A stretch of DNA of 64,000 nucleotides from Chryseobacterium sp. W4I1 (lineage in GTDB: Bacteria; Bacteroidota; Bacteroidia; Flavobacteriales; Weeksellaceae): contig NZ_JAUSXQ010000001.1 of assembly GCF_030816115.1 (NCBI RefSeq), positions 1,922,001 to 1,986,000 of the forward strand, in the 5' to 3' direction. The position numbers were made by a program, and so were the translations under genes. This document shows, piece after piece, positions 40,602 through 58,975 of this stretch (position 1 is the stretch's first letter; each line of letters begins with the position of its first letter). The notes under the pieces are model-generated. The model was not told the DNA's origin. It made no database searches and was given only the letters and a program-made list of their open reading frames with translations.

Positions 40602-42554
40602 TTATAATTTATTTTTAAGTTTTATTCTATGTAATTTATATTTTTTATCTTTTTTCTGTCTTAAAATAATTCCCGCCAATGGTGGAAGTTTTATTGTAAG
40701 AGATTTCGGGTGTCGCATCCATTCTTCATTTTTTTCATTTAAAATTTCAGCATCAACACCGCTTCCGTTATATTGCTGTTCATCGGAATTAAAGATTACT
40801 TCCCAATGGGTTCCTGAATTCACTCCAATTTTATAGTCTAAAACATTCGGGGTAAGATTCAAAATCACCATTAAAATATCATCTCTTTTTTTTCCTTTTC
40901 TAAGATACACATACACAGAATTCTCCAGATCATCAGCTTCCACCCATTCAAAACCGTTTTTATTGAACTGATTTTCGTAAAATGCAGTTTCATCACGGTA
41001 GAGATGATTAAGATCTTTTATAAGAGTCTGTGTTCCTTTGTGAACAGGATACTGTAGCAGGTGCCAGTCCAGGCTCCTGGTGAAATTCCATTCTCCTGTC
41101 TGAGCAAATTCATCTCCCATAAAGAGAAGCTTTGCGCCCGGGTGTGTAAACATATACACGTAAAGGGCCCGGAGATTGGCGAATTTCTGCCATTCGTCAC
41201 CGGGCATTTTATAGATAAGACTTGCTTTTCCGTGGACCACTTCATCATGCGACAGCGGCATCATATAATTTTCATTATACATATAGACAGATGCAAAAGT
41301 GATTTTGTGGTGATGGTATTTCCTGTTTTCCGGAGCTTCTTTAAAATAATCAAGCGTATCATGCATCCATCCCATCATCCATTTCATTCCAAAGCCTACC
41401 CCACCTGCATGAACGGGTTTGGTAAGTAGTGGAAAATCTGAACTTTCTTCCGCTATCGTGATAATACTGTTGCCAAATTCTTTATAAACTGCGGTATTGA
41501 ATTCCTGCAGGAAAGCTTTGGCTTCAAGATTGACGTTTCCTCCTTCTATATTATGTTCCCACTCGCCTTCATTCCTTGAATAATCGAGATGAAGCATTGA
41601 GGTAACAGCATCCACACGAAGCCCGTCGGCATGGTAACGTTCCAGCCAGAACATCGCATTGGAGATCAGAAAAGATTTAACCTCATTCCTGCCGTAGTTA
41701 AAAATATAGGATTTCCAATCCGGATGAAAACCTTTTCTCGGATCTTCATGTTCATATAAATAAGAGCCGTCAAAACGGTGAAGCCCATTGGCATCGCCGG
41801 GAAAATGAGACGGTACCCAATCTAAAATAACTCCGATTTCATTTTTATGAAGCTCATCAATCAGAAACATGAGATCCTGTGGTGAACCAAAACGGGAAGT
41901 AGCCGCATAGAATCCTGTAATCTGGTATCCCCAGCTCGGATCATAAGGATATTCCATAACCGGCATGAATTCTACATGTGTAAAGCCCATTTCCTTTGTA
42001 TAAGGGACTAATTTCTCAGCAATATCCCTGTAATTTAAATACTTGTCCGGAGCATCATCCTGTCTTACCCATGAACCTAAATGGAGTTCGTAAACGGATA
42101 TCGGAGCATCAAGACTGTTCTTTTTCCAGCGGCCTTCCATCCATTCTTTATCATTCCATTCATACCATGTGGTGGAAACCAACGATGCGGCCTGTAGGTT
42201 CTGTTCCCAGCTTAAGGCATAAGGATCACTTTTTTCCAGTATTTCACCTCTTGCCGTTTCTATAGCATATTTATATAAAGTACCCCAGTTGAGTCCTTCA
42301 ATAAAGCCTTCCCAGATCCCGGATCCGTCCCATCTCGGGAACAGAATATGATCTTTATGATTCCAGTTATTGAAATTTCCTATGACAGAAACTTTTTTTG
42401 CATTGGGAGCCCAAACCGAAAAATAAACGCCTTTTACCCCATCTTTTTCAGCAGCATGCGCTCCAAATTTCCCATACAGCTTATAATGCCGGCCTTCTTT
42501 AAAAAGGTAGACATCGTGGTCAGTGAACAGTGTATAGGTTTTAACAGAATTCAT
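40602..42554 (-). CDS. glgB: 1,4-alpha-glucan branching enzyme
   Basis: Transfers alpha-1,4 chain ends to alpha-1,6 positions. The 650-residue protein (ATG at 42554) has an N-terminal CBM48 (residues 25-115, with GNFNNWNHKDH). The GH13 barrel has region motifs DWVPSHFP, LRVDAVTSMLH (catalytic Asp), IAEESSDFP (catalytic Glu) and PLSHDEVVHG. It is the first gene of the glg operon and divergent from a CBM-bearing esterase, so a shared control region is plausible. Confidence 0.96.
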   Translation of the reverse strand: MNSVKTYTLFTDHDVYLFKEGRHYKLYGKFGAHAAEKDGVKGVYFSVWAPNAKKVSVIGNFNNWNHKDHILFPRWDGSGIWEGFIEGLNWGTLYKYAIETARGEILEKSDPYALSWEQNLQAASLVSTTWYEWNDKEWMEGRWKKNSLDAPISVYELHLGSWVRQDDAPDKYLNYRDIAEKLVPYTKEMGFTHVEFMPVMEYPYDPSWGYQITGFYAATSRFGSPQDLMFLIDELHKNEIGVILDWVPSHFPGDANGLHRFDGSYLYEHEDPRKGFHPDWKSYIFNYGRNEVKSFLISNAMFWLERYHADGLRVDAVTSMLHLDYSRNEGEWEHNIEGGNVNLEAKAFLQEFNTAVYKEFGNSIITIAEESSDFPLLTKPVHAGGVGFGMKWMMGWMHDTLDYFKEAPENRKYHHHKITFASVYMYNENYMMPLSHDEVVHGKASLIYKMPGDEWQKFANLRALYVYMFTHPGAKLLFMGDEFAQTGEWNFTRSLDWHLLQYPVHKGTQTLIKDLNHLYRDETAFYENQFNKNGFEWVEADDLENSVYVYLRKGKKRDDILMVILNLTPNVLDYKIGVNSGTHWEVIFNSDEQQYNGSGVDAEILNEKNEEWMRHPKSLTIKLPPLAGIILRQKKDKKYKLHRIKLKNKL

Positions 42555-42757
42555 CAAGATATTGTTGTACTTTATTTTTCCCTGAAACTACGAAAATTCC
42601 CAGCAATAACGTTTAAATTATTAATCAAATAATTATTATGTTAACTACTTTCTTTTTAGCGTATTGATCAAATATATTATTTTTTTCATTCATTTTTTTA
42701 TGATTTTAGAACAAACTTTTTTATAAATTTAGCTTTCAATTATATTAAACACAAATA

Positions 42758-43879
42758 ATGAGGTTTGAACTTTATACTGAAGAAAGCGATGACAGAACGG
42801 TGTATATCACCGGAAATTTCAACAACTGGAATCCCAGAGATTCCAATTATCAGCTTAAACAGCTGGATCCGCACAATTATTTTATAGAGATCGGGAACGA
42901 AATCCTTCCGGATATTGTGGAATACAAATTCACCAAAGGAGGCTGGGAAAACGTTGAACTCGATAAGTACGGAAATATCACCCCCAACCGTAAAGCTGAA
43001 AAAACTGCCGGGAAAACATCTGATACTATAGAGAAATGGCGACTCAACTGGGGACCTTTCAAAAAGGAATTCTTCCCTATTGCAGAAGTTATTTCAGAGG
43101 AATTTTATATTCCACAGCTCGACCGTTACCGTAAAATATGGGCAGTTCTGCCATTTGATTATTATGTCTCTGATAAACGATATCCTGTACTTTACCTTCA
43201 GGATGCCCAAAATCTTTTCAATGAAGGAAGCGGGTATGGAAACTGGGAAATCGACAAAAAGCTTTCCATTCTTGCAGAATACGGCCGTGGCGACGTCATT
43301 ATCATTGCGATAGAACATGGAAGCGAAGAGCGCATCAAGGAATATATTTTTGACAATGACAATATAGCCAACGGATCAGAAGGTAAAAAATACATCCGTT
43401 TCATTACAGATACATTAAAACCTTTTGTGGATGAACATTACCGTACCCATAAAGACCGTGACAATACAGGTATTGGGGGAAGTTCTTTAGGTGCTCTGAT
43501 CAGTATTTACAGTGGGTTTCTTTATCCCGAGGTCTATTCTAAACTGCTGATCTTCTCCCCTTCACTTTGGGTGGAACCTAACAATAACTTTCCGATGATG
43601 AACTTCAGGGTTCCTTTTAAAACAAAAATTTATCTTTATGGCGGCGGTCAGGAAGGTTCTAAAATGGTAAAAAGAATTCATGTTTTTGAAGAATATTTAA
43701 AACGCTGGGAAAAGAAGAACCTTTTTGATTTTGAATTCAAAACCAGCATCAATCCGGAAGGAACGCATAGCGAATTTTACTGGTCACAGGAATTCCCAAG
43801 AGCAATTGAATGGCTTTTCTATGACAATACTGAAAATCCGGTAGAAGTAAAACCACAACAACAGAGCATTAAATTATGA
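42758..43879 (+). CDS. Carbohydrate-binding-module/esterase fusion (Fes-like)
   Basis: A 373-residue fusion. The N-terminal part (1-85) resembles a CBM48/AMPK glycogen-binding module (TVYITGNFNNWNPRD), the same kind as in glgB next door. The C-terminal part (about 105-350) is an esterase of the enterochelin-esterase-like/esterase D family, with nucleophile S243 in GIGGSSLGAL and a likely catalytic His in GTHSEFYW near 340. It overlaps the M17 gene by four bases (ATGA). The binding module suggests glycogen or another glucan as anchor. The substrate of the esterase is unknown. No signal peptide is visible. Confidence 0.85.
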   Translation: MRFELYTEESDDRTVYITGNFNNWNPRDSNYQLKQLDPHNYFIEIGNEILPDIVEYKFTKGGWENVELDKYGNITPNRKAEKTAGKTSDTIEKWRLNWGPFKKEFFPIAEVISEEFYIPQLDRYRKIWAVLPFDYYVSDKRYPVLYLQDAQNLFNEGSGYGNWEIDKKLSILAEYGRGDVIIIAIEHGSEERIKEYIFDNDNIANGSEGKKYIRFITDTLKPFVDEHYRTHKDRDNTGIGGSSLGALISIYSGFLYPEVYSKLLIFSPSLWVEPNNNFPMMNFRVPFKTKIYLYGGGQEGSKMVKRIHVFEEYLKRWEKKNLFDFEFKTSINPEGTHSEFYWSQEFPRAIEWLFYDNTENPVEVKPQQQSIKL

Positions 43880-45291
43880 GATTAATTAATAAAAAAAATA
43901 AAAGCTATAGCCAGATTTTCCAACTTTTCACCGAGGAAGAATGGACAAAATCCAGCAAAAATTATAATAAAAATGTTTCCTCTTTTTTTTCGGGAAAGAA
44001 ATATGAGGTATTCATCCATACCGACGAAGAAAGTGTTACTTATCTTATTGGTTTAGGAAAATCTGCACTACAAAATTTCGAAGTACAGCAAGTTGCTGTT
44101 AAATTCACCCAAACCCAGAAAGAAAAGCTTCAGGCTGCTTCTACTCTTGTTTTAGCAGACTTCCTTAGTGAACGACAGTTTGAAGAATTTGTAAAAGGCT
44201 TACTTTTAGGAACATATAGTTATCCATTCAATAAAAAACATGTATTCTGGAACACTAAATTTGAAATTCACTTTGAAAATTTCAGCCAAAAAAAACTAGA
44301 TACCATCTGTTCAAAAGCCGAAGCGCTGGCCAACGGACAAACTGCCTGCCAGGAATGGCTGAATAAGCCGGCTAATCTAAAGAAACCGGAAATCCTAAGT
44401 GCCTATCTTAAAGGTTTAGCGAAGAAATATGAATTAAAATATACGGCGTTCAACAGGAAAAAGTGCGAGGAGCTTGGATTGGGCGCTTATCTCTCAGTTA
44501 ATCAAGGAAGTGCTTATGACGCTGCTTTTACGATCATCGAATATAAAACTACGGTTAAAAATGCCAAAACATTAGGCCTGGTAGGAAAATGTGTCCTTTT
44601 TGATACGGGAGGTGTTTCCTTGAAGGATCATAACAATATGCATTATATGAAATCTGATATGGGCGGTGCTACAGCCGTTATCGGAACACTGATCTACGCT
44701 GCAGAAATGAAACTTCCGGTGAACATCGTTGCTGTACTTCCTATCACGGACAATGCTATTTCTGAGAATGCTTTTCTTCCAAGCGATGTCATTACAGCCT
44801 ATAACGGAAAAACCATCGAGGTGCTTAATACAGATGCAGAAGGAAGAATGATCCTTGCTGACGGTCTTTCTTATCTGGCTAAGAATTATAAAACAGATTT
44901 CCTTATTGATCTTGCCACTTTGACCGGAAGTTCTGTGAGGATGTTTGGTGATACTTGTGGGGCCTTATTTTCCAATAATGAGAAACTGAAGGATCTTCTG
45001 ATAAAAACTGGAGATATCACTAACCAAAGACTTTGGAATCTTCCTTTATGGGACGTTTGGAAAGATGATATTCAGTCTGATGTGGCAGACCTTAAAAATA
45101 TATCAATGAAACCGATCGGTGACTGTATTATAGCAGCAAAATTCTTAGAACAGTTCATTGAAAATCATCCAAAATGGGCACATCTTGATATCGCAGGGGT
45201 TGCTTTTGGAAGTACAGGATATGCAAAAGAAAAAGCAGCAACCGGCTTTGGAGTGCAGTTACTGGCCGATTTAATTGAAAATTATCATTAA
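43876..45291 (+). CDS. M17 leucyl aminopeptidase
   Basis: Two-metal aminopeptidase removing N-terminal residues from peptides. The 471-residue protein has a distinctive N-terminal domain (1-160) and the M17 metal-binding catalytic core: K238 in VGKCVLFDTGG, D243, D261 in MKSDMGGATA, then NTDAEGR with D320 and E322 plus the bicarbonate-site arginine R324. All canonical ligands appear present. Its start codon overlaps the preceding esterase stop. M17 peptidases are frequent companions of amide-ligase gene clusters. Confidence 0.93.
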   Translation: MRLINKKNKSYSQIFQLFTEEEWTKSSKNYNKNVSSFFSGKKYEVFIHTDEESVTYLIGLGKSALQNFEVQQVAVKFTQTQKEKLQAASTLVLADFLSERQFEEFVKGLLLGTYSYPFNKKHVFWNTKFEIHFENFSQKKLDTICSKAEALANGQTACQEWLNKPANLKKPEILSAYLKGLAKKYELKYTAFNRKKCEELGLGAYLSVNQGSAYDAAFTIIEYKTTVKNAKTLGLVGKCVLFDTGGVSLKDHNNMHYMKSDMGGATAVIGTLIYAAEMKLPVNIVAVLPITDNAISENAFLPSDVITAYNGKTIEVLNTDAEGRMILADGLSYLAKNYKTDFLIDLATLTGSSVRMFGDTCGALFSNNEKLKDLLIKTGDITNQRLWNLPLWDVWKDDIQSDVADLKNISMKPIGDCIIAAKFLEQFIENHPKWAHLDIAGVAFGSTGYAKEKAATGFGVQLLADLIENYH

Positions 45292-45318
45292 AAATTAGTT
45301 TTTTTCAAAATTTCTCTG

Positions 45319-45387
45319 TATACTTGAGTATAGATTCTCAAAAACGCAGTTTATTTCTATTTTTAACATTAAATAATCAATAGAAAT
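45319..45387. promoter_or_regulatory. Two inverted-repeat sites upstream of the ATP-grasp operon
   Basis: TATACTTGAGTATA (45319-45332) is a palindrome with six-base arms. ATTTCTATT (45353-45361) and AATAGAAAT (45379-45387) form a nine-base inverted pair straddling where the -33 region would be. Both are candidate operators, though AT-richness makes chance matches possible. Confidence 0.4.
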
Positions 45388-45394
45388 TTACTTT

Positions 45395-45402
45395 TATATT
45401 TG
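45395..45402 (+). promoter_or_regulatory. -7 box of the ATP-grasp/GCS2 operon
   Basis: TATATTTG, an exact TAnnTTTG match, lies 29 bases before the ATG of the first ATP-grasp gene at 45432. No good -33 TTG is visible. Confidence 0.5.
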
Positions 45403-45431
45403 ATAATTTACTAAAAATATAAAAACATTAT

Positions 45432-46643
45432 ATGGAGGAGAAAACTATAGTATGTATTTCGTGCTATTACAAGGGCTATGACTTCATGGATGAAATGAAA
45501 AAGCTCGGTAACAAAATTATCTTAGTAACATCGGAGAGTCTTAAGGAGAAAAACTGGCCATGGCAAGCCATAGATGAAGTATTCTATATGCCTGAGTTAA
45601 AACCGTCGGTCTGGAACCTGGAACATCTGGTTCAGGGTTTTTCGCACCTGATGAAAACCAGGAAAATAGATGCTGTTGTCGCTCTTGATGATTATGACGT
45701 AGAAAAAGCAGCACTGATCAGAGAAACCTTTCGTATTCCCGGAATGGGACAGACCACACACCGGTATTTTAGAGACAAACTGGCCATGCGTCAAAAAGCT
45801 AAAGATTCAGGAATTAATGTTCCTGAGTTTACAGCAGTTTTTAATAATGATGAGGTCAATCGTTTTATAGAAAAAGTTCCTGGTCCCTGGGTATTAAAGC
45901 CCCGCTCGGAAGCATCAGCATCAGGCATCAAAAAATTATCCTCCAAAGAAGAGCTTTGGAACGAACTGGATGCTCTTGGAGAAGAGCGCCATCTGTTTTT
46001 ATTGGAAAGCTTTAAGCCCGGTGATGTTTATCATGTGGACAGCCTCACTTTTAATAAAGAAATTGTATTCACTTCTGCATCCAAATATCTTGCTCCTCCC
46101 ATGCAGGTTTCTCATGAAGGCGGTGTATTCAGATCGAAAACATTGGGACGATATTCGGAAGAATTTAAAGCCCTTGATGAGGTAAATGGAAAGGTTCTTT
46201 CCAGTTTTGGACTTCTCAACGGAGCTACCCATACTGAATTTATCCGGGGAAAGGCAGACGGAAAATGGTATTTCCTTGAAACCTCTTCCAGGGTTGGTGG
46301 TGCACACATTCCGGATCTGGTAGAAGCTTCCAGCAATATTAATATCTGGCGTGAATGGGCAAAAATTGAAGATGCCTTATTACGTGGAAAGAGCTACGAA
46401 GCCTCAAAACCCACCGGTTATTATTCAGGTCTCATCATTGCTTTGATCAAAGATAAACATCCTGATTACAGTGCTTTTGAAAGTGAAGAAGCTGTAAAAT
46501 TCCTTCCGATCGACCATCACGTTGGAATTGTCTACAAATCCAGCGATCCGGAGATTATACAGGAAAGATTGGATAGCGCTGCAGAAAAGATCCAGGCAGA
46601 AATGTTAAACATCCTTCCTCCAAAAAGCAAATTGACAAGCTAA
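45432..46643 (+). CDS. ATP-grasp ligase, unassigned substrate
   Basis: A 403-residue carboxylate-amine ligase of the ATP-grasp superfamily. The N-terminal preATP-grasp part (1-110) is followed by YFRDKLAMRQKAKDSGI near 115, the phosphate-binding WVLKPRSEASASGI near 150, and the metal-binding region LETSSRVGGAHI near 292. In the last motif the usual E-x-N asparagine is replaced by Ser, which is unusual. It heads a tight operon with an esterase, a second ATP-grasp and a GCS2 ligase. Such enzymes join a carboxylate to an amine through an acyl-phosphate; substrates cannot be read from the sequence. Confidence 0.9.
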   Translation: MEEKTIVCISCYYKGYDFMDEMKKLGNKIILVTSESLKEKNWPWQAIDEVFYMPELKPSVWNLEHLVQGFSHLMKTRKIDAVVALDDYDVEKAALIRETFRIPGMGQTTHRYFRDKLAMRQKAKDSGINVPEFTAVFNNDEVNRFIEKVPGPWVLKPRSEASASGIKKLSSKEELWNELDALGEERHLFLLESFKPGDVYHVDSLTFNKEIVFTSASKYLAPPMQVSHEGGVFRSKTLGRYSEEFKALDEVNGKVLSSFGLLNGATHTEFIRGKADGKWYFLETSSRVGGAHIPDLVEASSNINIWREWAKIEDALLRGKSYEASKPTGYYSGLIIALIKDKHPDYSAFESEEAVKFLPIDHHVGIVYKSSDPEIIQERLDSAAEKIQAEMLNILPPKSKLTS

Positions 46644-46665
46644 ACACAATAAAAGAAATTTATCA

Positions 46666-47379
46666 ATGCCGCATATAGAACATACAGATTATTATTCAAA
46701 TATATTAGGAACAAGCCTTAAAGTAGAAGTTACCGGACATTATGGACACCCGATCATCATGTTTCCAACTTCTCAGGGCCAGTATACCCAAAACCATGAT
46801 TTTCATCTAAACGGAAGTATCAACTGGTTCATAGAACAGGGAAAAGTAAAGCTATACAACGTTCAGACCATTGATGCATGGAGTTTTTATGATGAAACGA
46901 TTTCTCCTCAAAAAAGAATAAAGAATTATGAGCTGTACATGCAGTTCCTGATCCAGGAATTTATACCGTATATCCAAAAGATCCACAAAACACACCGTGT
47001 AGCAGTGGCTGGGGCAAGTTTTGGAGGTTATCATGCCGCTAACTTTGCCTTCAGGTTTCCGGATGTGGTCTCTCATCTGTTCTGTCTTTCAGGAGCTTTC
47101 AGCATCAGGAATTTCATGGACGGATATTCGGATGAACTGGTTTATTTTAACTGTCCGAAAGAGTTCGTAAAGAATGATGAAGCCTGGAAATATAAGCACA
47201 TGCACATCGTACTGAGCACCTCTGATCAGGATATCTGCAGGGATAAAAACATTGAAATGGCTGACATTTTAAGATCAAAAGGAATAGATTTCTGGTATGA
47301 TGAGAGAAAATGGATCAATCACGACTGGCCATTATGGAGGATGGTTTTTCCAACATTTATAGGTGCGTTTTTTTCCTAG
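46666..47379 (+). CDS. Esterase of the alpha/beta hydrolase fold
   Basis: A 237-residue cytoplasmic hydrolase. A GASFGGYH nucleophile elbow (S118), an aspartate in STSDQDICRD near 188 and a histidine in NHDWPLW near 222 make a plausible triad. The family resembles COG4947 esterases. It starts 22 bases after the first ATP-grasp gene and is followed by the second. In an amide-ligase operon a hydrolase of this kind could release or edit an ester or amide intermediate, but this is inference. Confidence 0.88.
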   Translation: MPHIEHTDYYSNILGTSLKVEVTGHYGHPIIMFPTSQGQYTQNHDFHLNGSINWFIEQGKVKLYNVQTIDAWSFYDETISPQKRIKNYELYMQFLIQEFIPYIQKIHKTHRVAVAGASFGGYHAANFAFRFPDVVSHLFCLSGAFSIRNFMDGYSDELVYFNCPKEFVKNDEAWKYKHMHIVLSTSDQDICRDKNIEMADILRSKGIDFWYDERKWINHDWPLWRMVFPTFIGAFFS

Positions 47380-47438
47380 AAAACCGTACATTTAAGAAGA
47401 TAAAATAGTAAAATATACACCAATTAAAAACAGAAATT

Positions 47439-48392
47439 ATGGCAAAAAAAGTGGGAATTCTATTCGGTATGGAAGATACGTTTCCTTGGGCATTTATCGA
47501 CAAGGTAAATGAATTGGGCGGCGGAGAGATCATTGCTGAACCGGTAACTATTGACAAACTGGAACAGGGTGCTGATTATGGTTATGCAGTCATTATTGAT
47601 AGAATTTCGCAGGATGTTCCTTTCTACAGAGCTTATTTAAAAAATGCAGCACTGAACGGAACTTATGTAATCAATAATCCGTTTTGGTGGAGTGCCGATG
47701 AAAAATTCTTCAACAATGCATTGATGTCAAAACTGGGTATTCCTCTGCCTAAAACGGTACTGCTTCCTTCGCACGAAAGACCGACTAACACTTCAGAAAC
47801 CTCATTCAGGAACCTGAAATTTCCCCACGACTGGGAATATATTTTTGATTATGTAGGGTTTCCTGCTTATATGAAACCTCATGATGGTGGCGGATGGAAA
47901 AGTGTATACAGAGTGGAAAATCCTGACGATCTTTGGAATAAATTGAGCGAAACAGAGCAGTTGGTCATGATGGTGCAGGAGGAAATTATTTTCGATGATT
48001 ACTACAGGGTGTATTGCCTGGGTAAAAAATACGTTCATATTATGCCTTACGAGCCCCGGAATGCTCCTCATTTAAGATATGCAACAACGCATCAGACGCA
48101 AGGAGAAGAGCTGGAAAAATTATTAAAAACCATTCATGATTACACGATTACCATGAATGAGGCGCTGGGCTATGATTTCAATACGGTAGAATTTGCGATC
48201 AGAGATGGAATTCCCTATGCTATAGATTTCTGTAATCCGGCTCCTGATGCAGACAGAAATGCTGTAGGGGAAGAAAATTTCGCATGGATTGTAGAGCATT
48301 CTGCTAAGCTGGCTATTGAAAAAGCCAAAGAATATGTTCCGGGAAAAACCAATATTTCATGGGGAACTTTTGTAAAAGATTCAGCCAGATAA
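47439..48392 (+). CDS. ATP-grasp ligase, RimK-like
   Basis: A 317-residue ATP-grasp protein. The ATP-binding lysine is in AYMKPHDGGGWKSVYRV (near 145). The central region is YYRVYCLGKKYVHIMPYEPR, and the metal-binding end is VEFAIRDGIPYAIDFCNPAPDADR (in blocks, near 244-266). The IDFCNPAPDAD stretch keeps an acidic residue and the Asn of the usual E-x-N. It differs from the first ATP-grasp protein in architecture, so the two probably catalyse different couplings. It starts 59 bases after the esterase. Confidence 0.88.
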   Translation: MAKKVGILFGMEDTFPWAFIDKVNELGGGEIIAEPVTIDKLEQGADYGYAVIIDRISQDVPFYRAYLKNAALNGTYVINNPFWWSADEKFFNNALMSKLGIPLPKTVLLPSHERPTNTSETSFRNLKFPHDWEYIFDYVGFPAYMKPHDGGGWKSVYRVENPDDLWNKLSETEQLVMMVQEEIIFDDYYRVYCLGKKYVHIMPYEPRNAPHLRYATTHQTQGEELEKLLKTIHDYTITMNEALGYDFNTVEFAIRDGIPYAIDFCNPAPDADRNAVGEENFAWIVEHSAKLAIEKAKEYVPGKTNISWGTFVKDSAR

Positions 48393-48421
48393 ACTTAAAA
48401 AAATAAAAAACACGAAAAGAA

Positions 48422-49540
48422 ATGCATCAGTTTACTATAGGAATCGAAGAAGAATATCAGATCATTGATGTTGAGAGCAGAGACTTAATATCTCATGTTT
48501 CCAAGATCATCGAAGGTGGAAAAGCCGTTTTAAGTGAAAATTTAAAACATGAGATGCACGAATCCATGATTGAAATGGAAACGAGAATCTGCCAGAATAT
48601 CCAGGAAGCACAAGCCGAATTAACAAATTTAAGAAGGCACCTTATCAACACTGCTCACGAACAGGGCTTGCGTGTATCCGGTGGTGGAACACATCCTTTT
48701 TCAAATTGGGAACATAACACAATCACCAATGGGGAACGTTACAACAAAATTGTAGACGATATGGGCGATGTTGCCCGTGGTAATCTTATTTTCGGACTGC
48801 ATGTACACATCGGGATTCCGAGCCGTGAAGAAGGAGTAAGAATTCAGAATGTCATGCGCTATTTCCTGCCTCATGTTTACGCCTTATCGGTTAATTCTCC
48901 ATTTTGGATTGGTAGAAATACAGGATTCAAATCTTACAGACAGGAAATCTTCGTGAAATTTCCGAGGACGGGAATTCCAAGTTATTTTAATTCCCTTGCA
49001 GAATTTGACAGTTATGTTGATCTTCTGGTAAAAACAGGAACAATTGACAATGCAAAGAAAATATGGTGGGATCTGAGGGTTCATCCGTTCTACCCTACTA
49101 TTGAATTCAGAATCTGTGATATGCCTTTAAGAATAGAAGAAACAGTCTGTCTTGCCGCTATCATGCAGAGTTTAGTAGCTAAAATCTACAAATTGCATCA
49201 GCAAAATTTAAGTTTCAGAAGCTACAGAAGATTATTGCTTAATGAAAATAAATGGAGGGCTTCCAAAGATGGAATACATTCCCATTTAATTGATTTCGGT
49301 AAAGAAGAATCTGTTCCCTATCCTGATCTGTTAAAAGAATTGCTGGAATTTATTGATGATGTAGTAGATGAATTAGGATGCAGAAAAGAAGTTGAATACG
49401 CATGGACTATTTTGAAAAACGGAACCGGAGCCGACAGACAGCTTAAAGTATATGAGGAAACAGGTGATTTAACAAAAGTGGTAGACTATATGATCTCTGA
49501 AACAGAGTATAGCATAACACATGGCGAAACGGCTTCATAA
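48422..49540 (+). CDS. GCS2 family carboxylate-amine ligase (YbdK-like)
   Basis: ATP-dependent ligase of the glutamate-cysteine ligase type 2 family. The 372-residue protein opens FTIGIEEEYQIIDVESRDLI, with the metal-binding Glu cluster. It contains HEMHESMIEMETRIC, a GLHVHIGIPSREEGV segment near 125, and WWDLRVHPFYPTIEFRICD near 217. Relatives ligate cysteine to glutamate, or unknown amino acids. The genetic context (two ATP-grasp ligases, an esterase, a glutamine amidotransferase) argues for a special metabolite rather than glutathione. Confidence 0.93.
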   Translation: MHQFTIGIEEEYQIIDVESRDLISHVSKIIEGGKAVLSENLKHEMHESMIEMETRICQNIQEAQAELTNLRRHLINTAHEQGLRVSGGGTHPFSNWEHNTITNGERYNKIVDDMGDVARGNLIFGLHVHIGIPSREEGVRIQNVMRYFLPHVYALSVNSPFWIGRNTGFKSYRQEIFVKFPRTGIPSYFNSLAEFDSYVDLLVKTGTIDNAKKIWWDLRVHPFYPTIEFRICDMPLRIEETVCLAAIMQSLVAKIYKLHQQNLSFRSYRRLLLNENKWRASKDGIHSHLIDFGKEESVPYPDLLKELLEFIDDVVDELGCRKEVEYAWTILKNGTGADRQLKVYEETGDLTKVVDYMISETEYSITHGETAS

Positions 49541-49549
49541 TATTTTCGG

Positions 49550-49557
49550 TAACTTTG
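49550..49557 (+). promoter_or_regulatory. Internal -7 box before the glutamine amidotransferase gene
   Basis: TAACTTTG, an exact TAnnTTTG match, sits in the 35-base gap after the GCS2 stop and 18 bases before the next start. An internal promoter is possible. Confidence 0.4.
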
Positions 49558-49575
49558 TAAAAAATATGAAGTAGT

Positions 49576-50409
49576 ATGAAAGATATTCGAATTGCTTTGG
49601 TAGACATGAACAACAATCATGTAAATCAGGGCTTTAGAAATATTAAAGAAATTTCGGAAGCATTCCAAAAGAGCTGTGAAGAAAACGTTATCATCAAAAC
49701 ATTTGATGTAAGGTTTAAGGATGAAATACCGGACATTAAGGATTTTGACATCTTTATTTCTTCAGGCGGGCCGGGAAATCCTCACAGGGAAGGTCTGGAA
49801 TGGGAAGAAAGATATGCCCATTTCCTGGATTCCGTTTTGGAGCACAACCAATATAATGAAGATAAAAAATATCTTTTCCTGATATGCCACTCATTCCAAC
49901 TGGCAAGCATTCATTGGAAACTGGGTAATATCTGTAAAAGACGATCATATTCATTTGGGGTAATGCCCATTCATAAAACAGAAGACGGGGAGCAGGAATT
50001 TTTATTCAAAAATCTCCAGGACCCTTTCTATGCAGTAGATTCAAGAGCTTACCAGTTCATTGAACCAGATATGGATCGTTTTGATGAATTAGGAATGAAA
50101 ATCACGGCTATTGAAAAATCCAGACCGCACATCAACCTTGAAAGAGCGGTAATGGCAGTCCGTTTCTCAGATGAAATATTCGGAACACAGTTCCATCCTG
50201 AAGCTGATCCAAAAGGTATGATTGAAAACCTGAAAGATGAGAAGAACAAATTAGCGATGATCGAAAACTTCGGAATGGAAAAATATCTTGAAACGGTAGA
50301 CAGAATAGATGATGAAGACAAGATCATTCTCACCAGAAGCCAAATCCTGCCAAGATTCCTTCAGTCAGCAAAAAAAAACATTTTGAAAGAAAGTGAAGCT
50401 TTAGCTTAA
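49576..50409 (+). CDS. Class I glutamine amidotransferase-like protein
   Basis: A 277-residue GATase1-fold protein. The oxyanion loop is SSGGPGNP (62-69), the nucleophile C104 lies in FLICHSFQLA, and the His/Glu dyad is in FGTQFHPEAD near 213. The complete triad suggests a working ammonia-producing domain, or a hydrolase acting on gamma-glutamyl amides. It follows the GCS2 gene in the same direction. The unusually acidic N-terminus and C-terminal extension (about 225-277) are not shared with GMP synthase. Confidence 0.88.
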   Translation: MKDIRIALVDMNNNHVNQGFRNIKEISEAFQKSCEENVIIKTFDVRFKDEIPDIKDFDIFISSGGPGNPHREGLEWEERYAHFLDSVLEHNQYNEDKKYLFLICHSFQLASIHWKLGNICKRRSYSFGVMPIHKTEDGEQEFLFKNLQDPFYAVDSRAYQFIEPDMDRFDELGMKITAIEKSRPHINLERAVMAVRFSDEIFGTQFHPEADPKGMIENLKDEKNKLAMIENFGMEKYLETVDRIDDEDKIILTRSQILPRFLQSAKKNILKESEALA

Positions 50410-50430
50410 ACATTTTTGAAATAGTAATAT

Positions 50431-50499
50431 ACTTCGACTTCGGTCAGCATGACATTCTAATACAATCTGTCTTTTTGAACCGTCACGAAGTCAAAGCAT
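50431..50499. repeat. Degenerate dispersed repeat (TTCGACTTCGG...CAGCATGACA type)
   Basis: The left arm (50431-50456) holds ACTTCGACTTCGGTCAGCAT. The right arm (50477-50499) holds CCGTCACGAAGTCAAAG, an imperfect complement. This motif recurs in intergenic DNA of many Bacteroidota. Its function is unknown. Confidence 0.5.
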
Positions 50500-50572
50500 A
50501 CACGCAAAATTATCAATCACTAAATCGGGCAGGAATGCTCGATTTTTTAAAATCAAATCACAAAGAAAAAAT

Positions 50573-51751
50573 ATGATCCCAAAATACAGAAAACAGTTCA
50601 ATCAGGAGTTTTCCCAGGAAAAATACGAACAGCTTAAAGGTATTCTTACACATAAAGGCGGCATGGAACCGGGCTTCAGAATTTCAGAAAGCCCCATTTT
50701 CCTCTCAAAAGAATTTAAGAATAAACTTCTTGATGCCAGTGAAAGTATAATTGACCAGATCAAGGAAATTCCGGAAGAAGTCCTTTATAAAGCGGTCCCG
50801 GATAATTGCAAGGTTCCTAATGACACAAAGCAACCTCACTTTTTTACGATAGATTTTGGGATCTGCCGAAGTGAAAACGGAGAAATAGAGCCGCAGCTGA
50901 TCGAGCTACAGGCTTTTCCCTCACTGTATGCTTTTCAAAAGACTTTTGAAGAAACCTTTTGTGAGGTCTACCCTTTTCTGTCTGAGATTAAAAACAAAAT
51001 GCCCAATGATGAATTTAAAAATCACTTAAAAGAACTTATCGTAGGAGACGAGAATCCTGAGAATGTTATTTTGCTTGAGATATTTCCAGAGAAGCAGAAA
51101 ACAGCAATAGATTTTGCATTAACAGAAAAGTTACTGGGAATAAAAACAGTATGCCTGACGAAAGTAAAGAAAGAAGGCAGAAAATTGTTTTACGAGAACA
51201 GTGGAGAGTCCGTTGAAATAAAAAGGATCTACAACCGTGTTATCTTTGATGAATTAGATAGAATCCCGGATTTAAAAACCGGATTTGATTTCCGTGAAGA
51301 TGTTGATGTAAAATGGATCACTCACCCCAACTGGTTCTTTAAGATCTCAAAGTTTCTTCTTCCTATGCTGAAACATCAGTTTGTTCCTAAAAGTTACTTC
51401 CTGCACGAGTTTCCGGAGCATGAAAGTTTAGAAAATTTTGTTCTGAAACCTTTATTTTCATTTGCAGGAAGCGGAGTGAATTTAGATCCGACAAAAGAAA
51501 TTACAGAAGCTATTGAAGATAAAGAAAACTATATTCTACAGCGGAAAGTAACTTATGAACCTATTTTTGAAGATATTAACGGAGACTTTTCAAAAGCAGA
51601 AATAAGGCTTCTTTATATCTGGCACGAAAATGCAGATCGTCCTATTCTGCTGGAAAATCTGGGAAGAATGACCAAAGCTGCCATGGTGAATGTAGACTTT
51701 AATAAGAAAGATGCGATTTGGATTGGGAGTTCTAATGCATTCTTTGAATAA
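50573..51751 (+). CDS. ATP-grasp-like protein of unknown function
   Basis: A 392-residue protein that I can only place by fold. The C-terminal third has ATP-grasp-like pieces: NFVLKPLFSFAGSGVNLD near 288, YILQRKVTYEPIF near 322, and NVDFNKKDAIWIGSSNAFFE at the end, where a metal-ligand block would lie. The N-terminal half (IDFGICRSENGEIEPQLIELQAF) resembles circularly permuted ATP-grasp proteins of the glutathionylspermidine-synthase group. It is 163 bases after the amidotransferase gene, from which it is separated by a repeat, and 16 bases before the next amidotransferase-like gene. Confidence 0.7.
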   Translation: MIPKYRKQFNQEFSQEKYEQLKGILTHKGGMEPGFRISESPIFLSKEFKNKLLDASESIIDQIKEIPEEVLYKAVPDNCKVPNDTKQPHFFTIDFGICRSENGEIEPQLIELQAFPSLYAFQKTFEETFCEVYPFLSEIKNKMPNDEFKNHLKELIVGDENPENVILLEIFPEKQKTAIDFALTEKLLGIKTVCLTKVKKEGRKLFYENSGESVEIKRIYNRVIFDELDRIPDLKTGFDFREDVDVKWITHPNWFFKISKFLLPMLKHQFVPKSYFLHEFPEHESLENFVLKPLFSFAGSGVNLDPTKEITEAIEDKENYILQRKVTYEPIFEDINGDFSKAEIRLLYIWHENADRPILLENLGRMTKAAMVNVDFNKKDAIWIGSSNAFFE

Positions 51752-51767
51752 AAAAACAAATGAACAA

Positions 51768-52469
51768 ATGATAGAAAAAATAGCGATTTTAGGTGATTTT
51801 AATCCTGCACATTACACTTTACACCAATTAAATAACACAACGAGGGATGTCCAGAAAGTCTTAAAAAAAGAGATTCAATTTGATTGGATCGCCACCGATA
51901 TTTTTGATTCAAAAATTGTATTTGAAAAACAAAACTATAAAGGTTTATGGGTAGCACCCGGAAGTCCGTATAAGGATAGGAATGGTGTACTTAATGCCAT
52001 CCACTATGCAAGGGAAAACAGGATTCCAACTTTTGGAAATTGTGGAGGATTCCAACACATGATTATAGAATTCGCCCAGAATGTATGTGGTATACAAAAT
52101 GCCGGCAATGAAGAAACAGACCCTACAAGCCCAGATCTTCTGATAAAAAAATTAGCATGTTCCTTAAGAGGTGAGGAAGAAATTCTTAATATCACTGAAA
52201 AAAACAGCTTTCTGTACCAAATCTTAAAACAGGATACACTTTTAGGAAAATACAACTGCAGCTATGGACTTAACGATCTATATATTAATAAATTAAGAGA
52301 TCATGGAATGGTATTCACATCGATTTCTAAGGATGGAAATTACAGATCATTTGAAATTACAGATCATCCTTTTTTTGTTGGAACATTATTCCAACCCGCT
52401 TTGACTTTTACCCTTGAAGCCCCAAACCCATTAATCATTGAGTTTGTAAAGAAGTCATTGAATCTTTAA
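51768..52469 (+). CDS. CTP-synthase C-terminal-like glutamine amidotransferase, catalytic dyad degenerate
   Basis: A 233-residue GATase1-like protein when started at the ATG at 51768; a longer start would overlap the upstream gene. The nucleophile C92 is in TFGNCGGFQHMI. Where GATases have F-H-P-E, this protein reads TLFQPAL, so the usual His and Glu are missing. This matches the family annotated as CTP synthase C-terminal region-related proteins. It is either catalytically altered or acts as a binding domain. Confidence 0.8.
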   Translation: MIEKIAILGDFNPAHYTLHQLNNTTRDVQKVLKKEIQFDWIATDIFDSKIVFEKQNYKGLWVAPGSPYKDRNGVLNAIHYARENRIPTFGNCGGFQHMIIEFAQNVCGIQNAGNEETDPTSPDLLIKKLACSLRGEEEILNITEKNSFLYQILKQDTLLGKYNCSYGLNDLYINKLRDHGMVFTSISKDGNYRSFEITDHPFFVGTLFQPALTFTLEAPNPLIIEFVKKSLNL

Positions 52470-52692
52470 ATACTTCAGTAAAATAGTATAAACAAGAGTT
52501 GAATTCATAATGAAATCAACTCTTATTATAGCTATAAACTTAAGGCCAATAAAGTGAAACAAGATAATACGCTCATTTTTTTGTAATTTGTTTTTTGGAT
52601 ATAAATAATAACTTAACAATAAGCTTTTTGCTTTATAGAAACTTTACTGTATTAGAAGATAACTCTTATACAGTAAATAAAAATGATTTTAT

Positions 52693-53187
52693 ATGCATCT
52701 TAAAAATGTTGATGAACTAATTTTTCAGCCGCTTGGGTTGAAACTTTTAAATATGGAAGAAGATAGAGAATCCAGTGAATATTCGGGCTGCAGTTTTATG
52801 TTAGACCGCTTGAATATTAAATTCCGTACATCTAAAATAACGCCGACCAAGACCGGGCAGTTCGTCACCATCTGGAAGCGGGATGAAAACGGAGAAACGG
52901 CTCCTTTTGATTCAGATGATCCTTATGATTTCTATCTGATTTCAGGATCCAGAGACAATAATAGAGGTATTTTCATATTTCCTAAAGAGATTCTGGTAGA
53001 AAAAGGAATTCTGTCTCATGGGAAAAAAAAGGGAAAAAGAGGAATCCGGGTTTATCCAAGTTGGGATCCTGCAGAAAGCAAACAGGCCATGGCGACTCAA
53101 AAATGGCAGACAGCCTATTTTCTTGATCTATCTCAGGATGAAGAATCATATCTTTCAAAAGCTAAGTTATTATTTAATTTACAATAA
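52693..53187 (+). CDS. MepB family protein
   Basis: A 164-residue protein of the MepB family, named after a gene in the MepR-MepA multidrug efflux locus of Staphylococcus. The family core is visible: YSGCSFMLDRLNIKFRTSKITPTKTGQFVTIWKR (in blocks) and KGKRGIRVYPSWD near 118, then TQKWQTAYFLDLS. The biochemical role is unknown. It is monocistronic, with 220 bases of AT-rich intergenic sequence on its left. Confidence 0.88.
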   Translation: MHLKNVDELIFQPLGLKLLNMEEDRESSEYSGCSFMLDRLNIKFRTSKITPTKTGQFVTIWKRDENGETAPFDSDDPYDFYLISGSRDNNRGIFIFPKEILVEKGILSHGKKKGKRGIRVYPSWDPAESKQAMATQKWQTAYFLDLSQDEESYLSKAKLLFNLQ

Positions 53188-53323
53188 GAACAGCTTAGCG
53201 ATTAGTGAGGCACTGGATAAAGCTGAAGAAGAGATATAAATTGAAATCAAGCAGGGATAATTTTATAAATTTCCGATACAAAAAGATTAGAAGCAATCCT
53301 ATGCAACCATTAATCTATACAAT

Positions 53324-54190
53324 ATGCAAAAACATGACAGCATACAACAGCACGATAAGTCAGGCATACAATTCAACTCAACTGAAAACCCTTATCTATC
53401 TGCTGATATCCAACAAAAAATTCTTCAGCCTCGTAAGTTGTCTTCATATTTTATTGTGTTAATTGAAAGTGGCTCCATCAAATATAAATTGGACTTGCAG
53501 GACATTACCCTAACAGCCGGACAATTGCTTTTTGCAATACCTAATCAGATTTTTATACCTCCGGATAAGGCAGATCATCTTAAATATTTTAAGGTACTGT
53601 TTGATGAAAACACTTTGGCATTGCTTCCACAACAATTTTCTTTTTTAGTTAACCCTTTAAACAGACAAAAAATAATTCTTGACGATTTCACAAGGCAACG
53701 TGTACAAAAAGTTTTTGAAATTTTAAATCAATTACTTCAAACAGATAAAAACCAACCAGACACAGAAATAGTATTGGCTTATTTGAACTCATTATTGGCA
53801 GAATTAAATAGCGCTTATTTCAAAAACAAAGAGCCCATAAATATTTTAAACACCAACTTGTCAAAATTTATTGAGTTTAAATTGGTTGTAGAAACACATC
53901 TCATTGAGCAACCGTCTATCCATACAATTGCTGAAAAATTAGCTCTGACCACTAATAGCCTATATCGTATTGTAAAAGAATATTCAGGAGTTTCCCCCAA
54001 GAATTTTTTTACCAGCCGTTTGATGATAGAAGCACAACGAAAACTGCATTATTCAAACCTTTCGGTAAAAGAATTGGCTTACGAATTAGGATTTAATGAC
54101 GCTGATTATTTTTCTAAACTTTTCAAAAAATGTACAGGGCAAAGCGTAACTGAATTTTTAGGAAACACTCAGGATTTGTCGGGTAAATAA
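53324..54190 (+). CDS. AraC family transcriptional regulator
   Basis: A 288-residue regulator with a short low-complexity N-terminus, a cupin-like sensor part (about 45-140) and the AraC-type DNA-binding region (about 195-285). The latter shows IHTIAEKLALTTNSLYRIVKEYSGVSP (in blocks) and VKELAYELGFNDADYFSKLFKKCTGQS. It is 67 bases before the SDR gene and points toward it, so it is probably its regulator, as in many AraC/SDR pairs. Codon usage and gene style look somewhat different from the neighbours, hinting at transfer. Confidence 0.85.
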   Translation: MQKHDSIQQHDKSGIQFNSTENPYLSADIQQKILQPRKLSSYFIVLIESGSIKYKLDLQDITLTAGQLLFAIPNQIFIPPDKADHLKYFKVLFDENTLALLPQQFSFLVNPLNRQKIILDDFTRQRVQKVFEILNQLLQTDKNQPDTEIVLAYLNSLLAELNSAYFKNKEPINILNTNLSKFIEFKLVVETHLIEQPSIHTIAEKLALTTNSLYRIVKEYSGVSPKNFFTSRLMIEAQRKLHYSNLSVKELAYELGFNDADYFSKLFKKCTGQSVTEFLGNTQDLSGK

Positions 54191-57782: not shown

Positions 57783-57827
57783 AATCTGTTTGCATTTTTA
57801 TCAGTTAACAATAACTCCTTCAAAAAT

Positions 57828-57835
57828 CAAAGATA
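57828..57835 (-). promoter_or_regulatory. -7 box of cphA
   Basis: TATCTTTG on the minus strand matches TAnnTTTG, 45 bases before the cphA ATG. A TTTC at 57852-57855 sits near the -33 position. Confidence 0.5.
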
Positions 57836-57857
57836 ATGTAAAAGCCTAAATGAAACT

Positions 57858-57940
57858 ATACCACATTTAAAGATTTCTCAAAAAAAATTTAAAAAAAATT
57901 AACTATTCTAAAACATTAAAAATCAATTTAAATGTGGTAT
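57858..57940. promoter_or_regulatory. Perfect 14-bp inverted repeat between cphA and cphB, likely shared operator
   Basis: ATACCACATTTAAA (57858-57871) and TTTAAATGTGGTAT (57927-57940) are exact reverse complements separated by 55 AT-rich bases. Each arm lies just upstream of its own promoter, 22 bases from the cphA -7 box and 27 bases from the cphB one. This symmetric position suits an activator or dimeric repressor that controls both divergent transcripts. Confidence 0.6.
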
Positions 57941-57967
57941 TAATTTCGTCAAATATTAATTATTTTT

Positions 57968-57975
57968 TAAATTTG
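57968..57975 (+). promoter_or_regulatory. -7 box of cphB
   Basis: TAAATTTG, an exact TAnnTTTG match, ends six bases before the ATG at 57982, which would leave a nearly leaderless message. Confidence 0.55.
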
Positions 57976-57981
57976 TACCCT

Positions 57982-58872
57982 ATGATGAAACCCGTTGGAA
58001 AATTAATAGTTATCGGAGGCGCTGTAAACAAAGGAAGTTTTGCAGAAACCGATTTCGACCAGAATATTGAAAAAAATCTTAACTTTTTTGAAAGAGGAAT
58101 TTTGCGAAAGATTATAAATGAATCCAAGCATAAGGAAAATTCAGTCATTGAAGTAGTCACTACAGCATCCCAGATCCCCCAGATCGTAGGTACGGAATAT
58201 AAAAAAGCTTTTGAATTTTTAGGAGCCAAAAATGTGAATATTCTTGATATTCATAACCGTGAGGAAGCTAATTCTGATGCTATGGTGGCCAGAGCCAATG
58301 CTGCAGATGTAATGATGTTTACCGGCGGTGATCAGTTGAGATTAACCTCTATTCTGGGTGGTACAAGATTTCATGATACCATTTTATTAAAATACCAAGA
58401 GCAGGATTTTATCTATTCCGGAACGTCTGCAGGTGCTGCAGCTGCCTCTGAAAATATGATCTACCAGGGAAGCAGCTCTGAAGCTCTTCTGAAAGGCGAG
58501 ATCAAAACAACACAGGGACTTGGCCTTATAGATAATGTCATCATCGATACGCATTTCGTGCAGAGAGGAAGAATCGGGCGTCTTTTTCAGGCAGTTGTCA
58601 ACAATCCGAGAACATTAGGAATCGGACTTGGAGAAGATACCGGACTTTTTATCCATAATGATGTAATGACTGCCGTAGGTTCCGGTCTGGTGATCCTTGT
58701 GGACGGAAGATTCATTAAAGATACCAACCTTACGAACATCAACCTCGGCGAGCCTATTTCAATTGATAATCTAACGGTACATGTAATGTCTATGAATGAT
58801 CATTATGATCTTACCACGAAAAAATTAACCATCGAGAATTCTCAGTTTAACCCGATACCGCAGGATAAATAA
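57982..58872 (+). CDS. cphB: Cyanophycinase
   Basis: Serine exopeptidase (S51) releasing beta-Asp-Arg dipeptides from cyanophycin. Start at the ATG at 57982 (MMKPVGKLIVIGG); the longer frame begins upstream of the promoter. Catalytic S149 is in GTSAGAAAAS, the family elbow. Other features are MFTGGDQLRLTSILGGT near 113 and DTHFVQRGRIGRLFQ near 195, with a C-terminal beta-rich part. The 296-residue length is normal. A signal peptide is absent, so the enzyme is intracellular. Confidence 0.95.
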   Translation: MMKPVGKLIVIGGAVNKGSFAETDFDQNIEKNLNFFERGILRKIINESKHKENSVIEVVTTASQIPQIVGTEYKKAFEFLGAKNVNILDIHNREEANSDAMVARANAADVMMFTGGDQLRLTSILGGTRFHDTILLKYQEQDFIYSGTSAGAAAASENMIYQGSSSEALLKGEIKTTQGLGLIDNVIIDTHFVQRGRIGRLFQAVVNNPRTLGIGLGEDTGLFIHNDVMTAVGSGLVILVDGRFIKDTNLTNINLGEPISIDNLTVHVMSMNDHYDLTTKKLTIENSQFNPIPQDK

Positions 58873-58882
58873 AAAGTAAAAT

Positions 58883-58965
58883 AGTTAATGGTAAATTGTA
58901 AATTCATTAGCCATAGTTCTATACTTAACTTTAAAAATTGACCATCGACTTTTCACAATTGACAA
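58883..58965. repeat. Low-complexity inverted repeat between cphB and the isoaspartyl peptidase gene (locus E)
   Basis: The left arm (58883-58907) reads AGTTAATGGTAAATTGTAAA. The right arm (58934-58965) carries AATTGACCATCGACTTTTCA and CAATTGACAA in opposing sense. It is placed inside the cphB-iaaA transcription unit and belongs to the family at 4336, 19585, 24662 and 37157. Confidence 0.6.
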
Positions 58966-58975
58966 ATACAATATT

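What the first reader, a model, noticed from the sequence alone, without database searches (positions are those of the whole stretch)
42758..52469. Ten-kilobase amide-ligase gene cluster: candidate undescribed biosynthetic system
Nine genes on the plus strand combine an esterase with a glucan-binding module, an M17 aminopeptidase, two clear ATP-grasp ligases plus a third ATP-grasp-like protein, a second esterase, a GCS2 ligase, and two class-I amidotransferase-like proteins. Such mixtures of ATP-grasp and GCS2 ligases with hydrolases are known in outline from comparative genomics of amidoligases (Iyer, Aravind and colleagues). No product of this exact set is known to me. The likely logic is stepwise amide or peptide-bond formation on a carboxylate scaffold, amidation using glutamine nitrogen, and trimming by the hydrolase and peptidase. 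Sitting next to glycogen and cyanophycin genes, it could make a storage or protective peptide-like compound.
Basis: partly seen in the sequence, partly recalled or inferred. Interest (0 to 1): 0.8.

Follow-up and report, generated by a model that had tools for sequence, protein, structure and literature searches.

The report
Conserved amide-ligase gene set in Bacteroidota
A block of genes that this bacterium shares with many distant relatives looks like a small assembly line for joining amino-acid-like pieces with amide bonds, resembling in outline how cells make glutathione and its polyamine conjugates, but its product is unknown.

Summary
A five-gene core, esterase–ATP-grasp–GCS2–class-I GAT–ATP-grasp (g4–g8), occurs in that exact order in 69 of 80 named Bacteroidota loci, the closest by g5, and in 15 of 71 loci from unselected genomes. 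In 198 genomes the families are gained and lost together, also within families and often unlinked. Corrections: the cluster is two modules. The second (g1–g3) is variable: elsewhere g3 has g2 beside it in 10 of 36 loci, six with g1 too. g9 is a strain-specific insertion. The cyanophycin gene does not track g5. Parts are sharper: g3 resembles L-amino-acid dipeptide ligases, g5 has the RimK fold, g6 is YbdK-type GCS2, and g8, without a Pfam family above cutoff, has the glutathionylspermidine-synthetase/eukaryotic glutathione-synthetase fold. Best reading: an NRPS-independent pathway that builds and trims a gamma-glutamyl-type small peptide amide, with glutathionylspermidine-like logic; product and substrates unknown.

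The parts
42758..43879 (+). g1: PF00756 esterase with a weak N-terminal glycogen-binding-like (CBM48/AMPK1) region; module B
   Evidence: Pfam; best PDB relatives are feruloyl esterases/CE1 over the esterase part; beside g2-g3 in L110-L114 and L128
43876..45291 (+). g2: M17 aminopeptidase; K238 D243 K250 D261 D320 E322 R324 invariant in 13 sequences; the only M17 match of this genome; module B
   Evidence: Pfam, alignment, own-genome family search; role of the residues recalled
45432..46643 (+). g3: ATP-grasp ligase of the L-amino-acid alpha-ligase kind; module B
   Evidence: profile of 12 sequences hits L-amino acid ligase 4wd3 E 2.4e-23, BL00235 3vot 2.9e-12, BacD 5.6e-7
46666..47379 (+). 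g4: small PF00756 alpha/beta hydrolase, GxSxG Ser118 in 16 of 18 aligned (by eye), invariant D189; core module A
   Evidence: alignment; match in 77 of 80 named loci
47439..48392 (+). g5: ATP-grasp ligase of RimK/LysX/ArgX fold; anchor of core module A
48422..49540 (+). g6: GCS2, YbdK-type carboxylate-amine ligase; core module A
   Evidence: NF010039 533 bits over cutoff 371; YbdK 1r8g E 7.7e-65
49576..50409 (+). g7: class-I glutamine-amidotransferase-like hydrolase with conserved Cys104-His207-Glu209; core module A
   Evidence: at least 97% of 35 sequences and all of 25
50573..51751 (+). g8: ATP-grasp ligase of glutathionylspermidine synthetase / eukaryotic glutathione synthetase fold; core module A
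51768..52469 (+). g9: CTP-synthase-C-terminal-related GAT-fold protein; strain-specific insertion, not part of the conserved system
   Evidence: no match in any of 80 and 71 related loci

Best explanation
Two gene modules encode a pathway, independent of ribosome and NRPS, that builds a small peptide-like amide from amino acids and probably an amine. Shown: the genes, their families and predicted folds, their conserved order and co-inheritance. Inferred: GCS2 (g6) makes a gamma-glutamyl bond; the RimK-fold ligase (g5) and, where present, the L-amino-acid-ligase-like g3 add amino-acid units; the GspS/GSS-fold ligase (g8) caps the C-terminal carboxylate with an amine or amino acid; the GAT-fold g7 hydrolyses a gamma-glutamyl amide (or glutamine); and the esterases (g4, g1) and aminopeptidase (g2) trim or recycle the product. 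This works like glutathione/glutathionylspermidine metabolism. The product is unknown and the order of steps is a guess.
Against: The set is not fixed. G037, G064, G158 and G178 have g5, g7 and g8 but no g6. Family f23 and others have g5, g6 and g8 without g7. Eight loci (families f17, f20, f28) have a different ATP-grasp-like protein after g5 and no g8. G154 has g6-g8 but no g5 match. Away from module A, g3 has no g2 match beside it in 26 of 36 loci. g2 is the genome's only M17, so it may be the housekeeping enzyme. A YgiC-like fold need not mean glutathionylspermidine synthesis: PMC12506659 states that YgiC does not have the same activity as Gsp (passage). By eye, the Arg of the R-x-D motif quoted for Cp1B is not conserved in g8 and the Asn is Gln113. 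The g5 model is only moderately confident, and RimK stands only 3 to 4 Z units above other ATP-grasp folds. In 16 of 80 named loci, none of the 71 others, a class-III aminotransferase lies near g8, which this scheme does not use. No substrate is identified.
Confidence: 0.4

Rival explanations
1. The ligases modify the C-terminus or side chain of a cellular protein (as RimK does to ribosomal protein S6) rather than making a free metabolite; the hydrolases reverse the tag.
For: g5 has the RimK/LysX/ArgX fold, and RimK and LysX/ArgX act on protein carboxylates (RimK: passages; LysX/ArgX recalled); hydrolases with conserved catalytic residues sit beside the ligases.
Against: No conserved small target or carrier protein was found within 800 nt of the core. 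g3, g6 and g8 resemble small-molecule ligases, although GspS-like enzymes can use peptides.
Confidence: 0.15
2. A catabolic or salvage route: gamma-glutamylation protects an amine or amino acid during breakdown (as PuuA/PuuD do for putrescine, recalled) and the GAT-fold g7 removes the glutamyl group.
For: A GCS2 ligase with a GAT-fold hydrolase and esterases in one operon fits put-on/take-off logic. In 16 of 80 named loci, all Cytophagales-type records, a class-III aminotransferase (best NCBIfam matches argD and putrescine aminotransferase, all below cutoff, one representative scanned) lies near g8, and an ammonium-transporter-like gene (by eye) lies in 12 of 80.
Against: Those neighbours are lineage-limited: the aminotransferase is in none and the transporter in one of the 71 unselected-genome loci. 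No other metabolic gene recurs in 9 or more of the 71. Two or three further ATP-grasp ligases are more than such a route needs.
Confidence: 0.2
3. The first reader's storage or protective peptide linked to glycogen and cyanophycin.
For: glgC-glgA-glgB, cphA, cphB and a beta-aspartyl-peptidase-like gene (below cutoff) flank the cluster here and in close relatives; g1 has a weak glycogen-binding-like region; a homologue of the peptidase gene also lies near g3 in L089, L093 and L094.
Against: cphA is found in 21 of 198 genomes and overlaps g5 no more than chance (10, Fisher p 0.34). Among named loci the glg operon adjoins only in Chryseobacterium and close genera; distant glgA homologues lie near g3 in two of 36 loci.
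Confidence: 0.08

Closest known systems
Glutathione / glutathionylspermidine pathway (GCL, GSS/GspS, YgiC/YjfC)
   Same: A GCS2-family ligase together with a GspS/GSS-fold ligase
   Different: g6 is YbdK-type, not an established GCL; g8 is about 10-16% identical to the solved structures; extra RimK-fold and L-amino-acid-ligase-like enzymes; no amidase domain fused to g8 (392 aa)
Standalone ATP-grasp pseudo-peptide pathways (E-64 Cp1B, dapdiamide, tabtoxin TabS, bacilysin BacD)
   Different: No adenylating amide-bond synthetase or warhead oxygenase was recognised among the recurrent neighbours; g5 is held by 72 of 198 genomes of the phylum rather than by a few strains
Amidoligase neighbourhoods predicted by Iyer, Abhiman, Burroughs and Aravind 2009
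   Same: Predicted gene sets joining diverse amide ligases with peptidases (recalled)
   Different: The paper is not held, so whether this exact set was drawn there could not be checked
RimK / LysX / ArgX
   Same: Fold of g5
   Different: TIGR00768 33.9 bits against cutoff 143.4; no carrier-like small gene found beside the core

Membership tests
YbdK-type GCS2 carboxylate-amine ligase (g6) | Score over the NCBIfam cutoffs NF010039 and TIGR02050 | tested here: met
   533 bits vs 371; 302.2 bits vs 176.4
YbdK-type GCS2 carboxylate-amine ligase (g6) | ATP-dependent gamma-glutamyl-amide formation | not testable with these tools
   needs an assay
Glutathionylspermidine synthetase/eukaryotic GSS fold (g8) | Whole-length fold match standing above other ATP-grasp folds | tested here: met
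Glutathionylspermidine synthetase (g8) | Pfam PF03738 gathering score | tested here: not met
   17.2 bits vs 29.3
Glutathionylspermidine synthetase (g8) | R-x-D ... E-x-N active-site residues (as quoted for Cp1B) | tested here: inconclusive
   D94 and E111 invariant in 53 sequences; Arg seems replaced and Asn is Gln113, but the placement is by eye, not by a structural alignment
RimK (g5) | TIGR00768 trusted score | tested here: not met
   33.9 vs 143.4 bits; fold alone agrees
L-amino-acid alpha-ligase (g3) | Best profile relatives are L-amino acid ligases | tested here: met
   4wd3 2.4e-23, 3vot 2.9e-12, 30vh 7.5e-9, BacD 5.6e-7; 4dim, a phosphoribosylglycinamide synthetase, lies between at 7.1e-11
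L-amino-acid alpha-ligase (g3) | Dipeptide formation from free L-amino acids | not testable with these tools
   needs an assay
Class-I glutamine amidotransferase (g7) | Cys-His-Glu triad | tested here: met
   C104, H207, E209 in at least 97% of 35 and all of 25 sequences
Class-I glutamine amidotransferase (g9) | Cys-His-Glu triad | tested here: not met
   Cys present, H-P-E read as Q-P-A (by eye, translation)
Graspetide / carrier-protein ligase systems | Conserved precursor or carrier peptide gene beside the ligases | tested here: not met
   1397 small ORFs of 25-89 aa within 800 nt of the core in 80 loci; representatives of the 12 largest recurrent sets lie over or antisense to larger genes

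The most novel reading that the evidence does not exclude
Many Bacteroidota make a previously undescribed gamma-glutamyl peptide–polyamine conjugate, possibly a second low-molecular-weight thiol beside bacillithiol, with its own synthetases (g6, g5, g8, with g3), S-acyl or ester hydrolases (g4 and the second esterase) and gamma-glutamyl hydrolase (g7). The DinB/mycothiol-S-transferase domain fused to the second esterase in two Hymenobacter loci (L224, L227; a homologue in L044) would be its transferase.
Probability: 0.12. Interest if true: 0.85.

Novelty: new variant of a known kind. Interest (0 to 1): 0.57.

Why it matters
Of 198 sampled Bacteroidota genomes 72 hold g5, and 58 of those 72 also hold g6 and 58 hold g8. 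A pathway this widely kept, made of recognisable amide ligases but with no known product, is a directly testable gap in the metabolism of a major bacterial phylum. The enzymes would be candidate biocatalysts for amide bonds. If the product is a glutathionylspermidine-like conjugate, it would be a new small-molecule protectant or thiol system.

Tried and rejected
Cyanophycin link: no association beyond the genus group. Replacement of the main thiol: the bshC (bacillithiol) family was found in 196 of 198 genomes, so there is no anti-correlation to exploit and the set is not the sole thiol system. RiPP/graspetide or LysW-like carrier: none found. Defence system: no PADLOC match at 1e-5 for 10 of 10 proteins. 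Bacteroidota-type promoter pattern (recalled consensus): no hit in 42000-53500. DinB: a search with the L224 and L227 domains at 1e-3 found only L224, L227, L044 and one separate ORF in L212; the ORFs of 71 unselected-genome loci, of 55 named loci and of 42 loci around g3 were given, not those of the 25 named loci of the Chryseobacterium group. Published description: none seen in nine answered paper searches, which cover only open-licence PMC papers. Passages only were read of PMC4431377, PMC12568646, PMC12506659, PMC11036162 and PMC6920838. PMC11036162 reports an induced RimK-type ATP-grasp protein in a Maribacter polysaccharide locus; it was not compared with g5. Plant GGP1/LAP1 papers were seen as a listing only.

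Rows dropped before counts: G175 for g8 (E 9.6e-4), G127 for g7 (4.5e-4), and g3 matches under 300 bits (43 of 53 matching genomes kept). Presence of g5 in G007 and G087 rests on 31 and 35% identity, in G160 on 41%. Of 72 genomes with g5, 71 regions were fetched besides the window's own. Of 43 genomes with g3, 36 regions away from module A were fetched. The within-family test used 85 genomes of 15 families, entered by hand from the tables; families with one genome or no variation were left out, as were some not listed. Contig breaks in draft assemblies can hide linkage.
Full report
What is there. The window is a 64-kb part of a single-contig 4.62-Mb genome whose nearest named relatives are Chryseobacterium. 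I call them g1 to g9. Gaps between neighbours are mostly short, as in an operon, with larger gaps before g3 (140 nt) and g8 (163 nt).

Co-occurrence. In 198 Bacteroidota genomes drawn evenly from the phylum, g5 is found in 72, and after dropping marginal rows g8 in 60, g6 in 62, g7 in 50 and g3 in 43. Presence is strongly correlated (phi 0.52 to 0.88 over ten pairs), and every genome counted for g3 has g5. Because relatives are not independent, I permuted presence within 15 families (85 genomes): for the five pairs tested none of 20,000 permutations reached the observed overlap. Examples are family f15, where seven genomes have all five families and eight have none, and f2, where fourteen of eighteen have none. 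The association does not need linkage: g6 is not within 10 kb of g5 in 19 of 58 genomes with both, g8 in 23 of 58, g7 in 16 of 49.

Gene order. In the 80 named loci closest in g5, g4-g5-g6-g7-g8 occur on one strand in exactly that order in 69, among them loci of Chryseobacterium, Elizabethkingia, Kaistella, Maribacter, Polaribacter, Winogradskyella, Dyadobacter, Spirosoma, Hymenobacter, Cyclobacteriaceae and Saprospiraceae. In 71 loci from the unselected genomes the figures are lower: 15 with all five, 27 with at least four.

Two modules. Of 36 loci taken around g3 where it lies away from module A, ten have g2 beside it (L110-L114, L118-L121, L128), six of them with g1 too; in the other 26 no g2 was matched, so module B is looser than module A. 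In 20 of 80 named loci, all Chryseobacterium and close genera, g1-g8 stand together as here; in L207, L212, L216 and L219 g2 and g3 lie near the full core with g2 on the other strand. Two different arrangements that bring the modules together support a functional tie. In 36 of 80 named loci a second esterase-like ORF is divergent from g4; the four of these scanned are PF00756.

What does not belong. No related locus has g9: none of 80 and none of 71. Compared with L150 (97% identical g5), the window carries about 0.9 kb extra between 51764 and 52675, which is g9. In the search of 198 genomes the next-best matches are at 36% identity or less and nearly all those listed lie in open frames of CTP-synthase size; the list was cut. 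The motif that should supply the catalytic His-Glu reads Q-P-A. The glg operon (NCBIfam) and cphA/cphB adjoin in Chryseobacterium and close genera, and cphA presence does not follow g5 (10 of 21, p 0.34).

Variation. Four genomes of family f5 have g5, g7 and g8 without g6. Seven of eight f23 genomes have g5, g6 and g8 without g7. Eight loci of families f17, f20 and f28 have a distinct ORF of about 455 aa after g5; the one scanned, L092_10, weakly matches circularly permuted ATP-grasp families PF14403 and PF04174, below cutoff. An extra esterase-related ORF follows g7 in L084, L092 and L097 (by clustering). In 16 of 80 named loci, none of 71 others, a class-III aminotransferase lies near g8. 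So g5 is the anchor and the other enzymes are exchangeable, as expected for related pathways with different products, but also compatible with something looser.

Mechanism. A GCS2-family ligase (g6) with a GspS/GSS-fold ligase (g8) is the kind of pair used for glutathione and its polyamine conjugates (general knowledge). YgiC and YjfC, the nearest structures of g8, are described as peptidylpolyamine synthetases in PMC12568646 (passages), which also describes E-64, built by the ATP-grasp ligase Cp1B followed by an amide-bond synthetase. PMC12506659 states that YgiC lacks the activity of Gsp (passage), so fold does not fix the substrate. I propose serial ligation (g6, g5, with g3 where present, then g8) and hydrolytic processing (g7, g4, g1, g2). 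Which carboxylate and amine are joined is not shown. g7 may be a glutaminase or a gamma-glutamyl hydrolase; plant gamma-glutamyl peptidase GGP1 and M17 dipeptidases in glutathione-conjugate processing are recalled analogies, not tests. Against: the seemingly altered motif of g8, the missing members in several lineages, the loose tie of g2, and g2 being the only M17 of the genome.

The thiol reading. The bshC family is present in 196 of 198 genomes, so the set cannot be a replacement for bacillithiol. Two Hymenobacter loci fuse the second esterase with a DinB_2/mycothiol-S-transferase domain, and L044 has a homologue of that fusion. This hint keeps the thiol reading alive but weak.

Known or new. 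The parts belong to known enzyme kinds; the assembled, co-inherited set and its two-module structure were not found described in nine answered literature searches of an open-licence library. I rate it a new variant of a known kind.

Noticed in passing
51764-52675: A strain-specific insertion carrying a CTP-synthase-C-terminal-related protein between g8 and the MepB-like gene; L150 and L156 keep g8 and the MepB-like gene without it.
   Followed up: partly
55152-59818: Cyanophycin set: cphA (minus), cyanophycinase and a beta-aspartyl-peptidase-like protein. A homologue of the last also lies near g3 in L089, L093 and L094.
   Followed up: partly
L224:7518-9077, L227:7563-9251: PF00756 esterase fused to a DinB_2/mycothiol-S-transferase domain, divergent from the core cluster, in Hymenobacter.
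   Followed up: partly
L084, L088, L089, L090, L092, L093, L094, L096: Variant cluster in which a different ORF of about 455 aa, weakly like circularly permuted ATP-grasp proteins (one scanned), follows g5.
   Followed up: partly
L183, L185, L186 and 13 further named loci: A class-III aminotransferase downstream of g8 in Cytophagales-type loci, absent from the 71 unselected-genome loci.
   Followed up: partly
50410-50572: The g7-g8 gap contains a hairpin followed by a T run that looks like a terminator (by eye); in relatives such as L175 g7 and g8 touch, with no such gap.
   Followed up: no
L148 (G154): g6-g7-g8 present but no g5 match in the genome although the contig continues: a natural case of the core without its anchor.
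   Followed up: no
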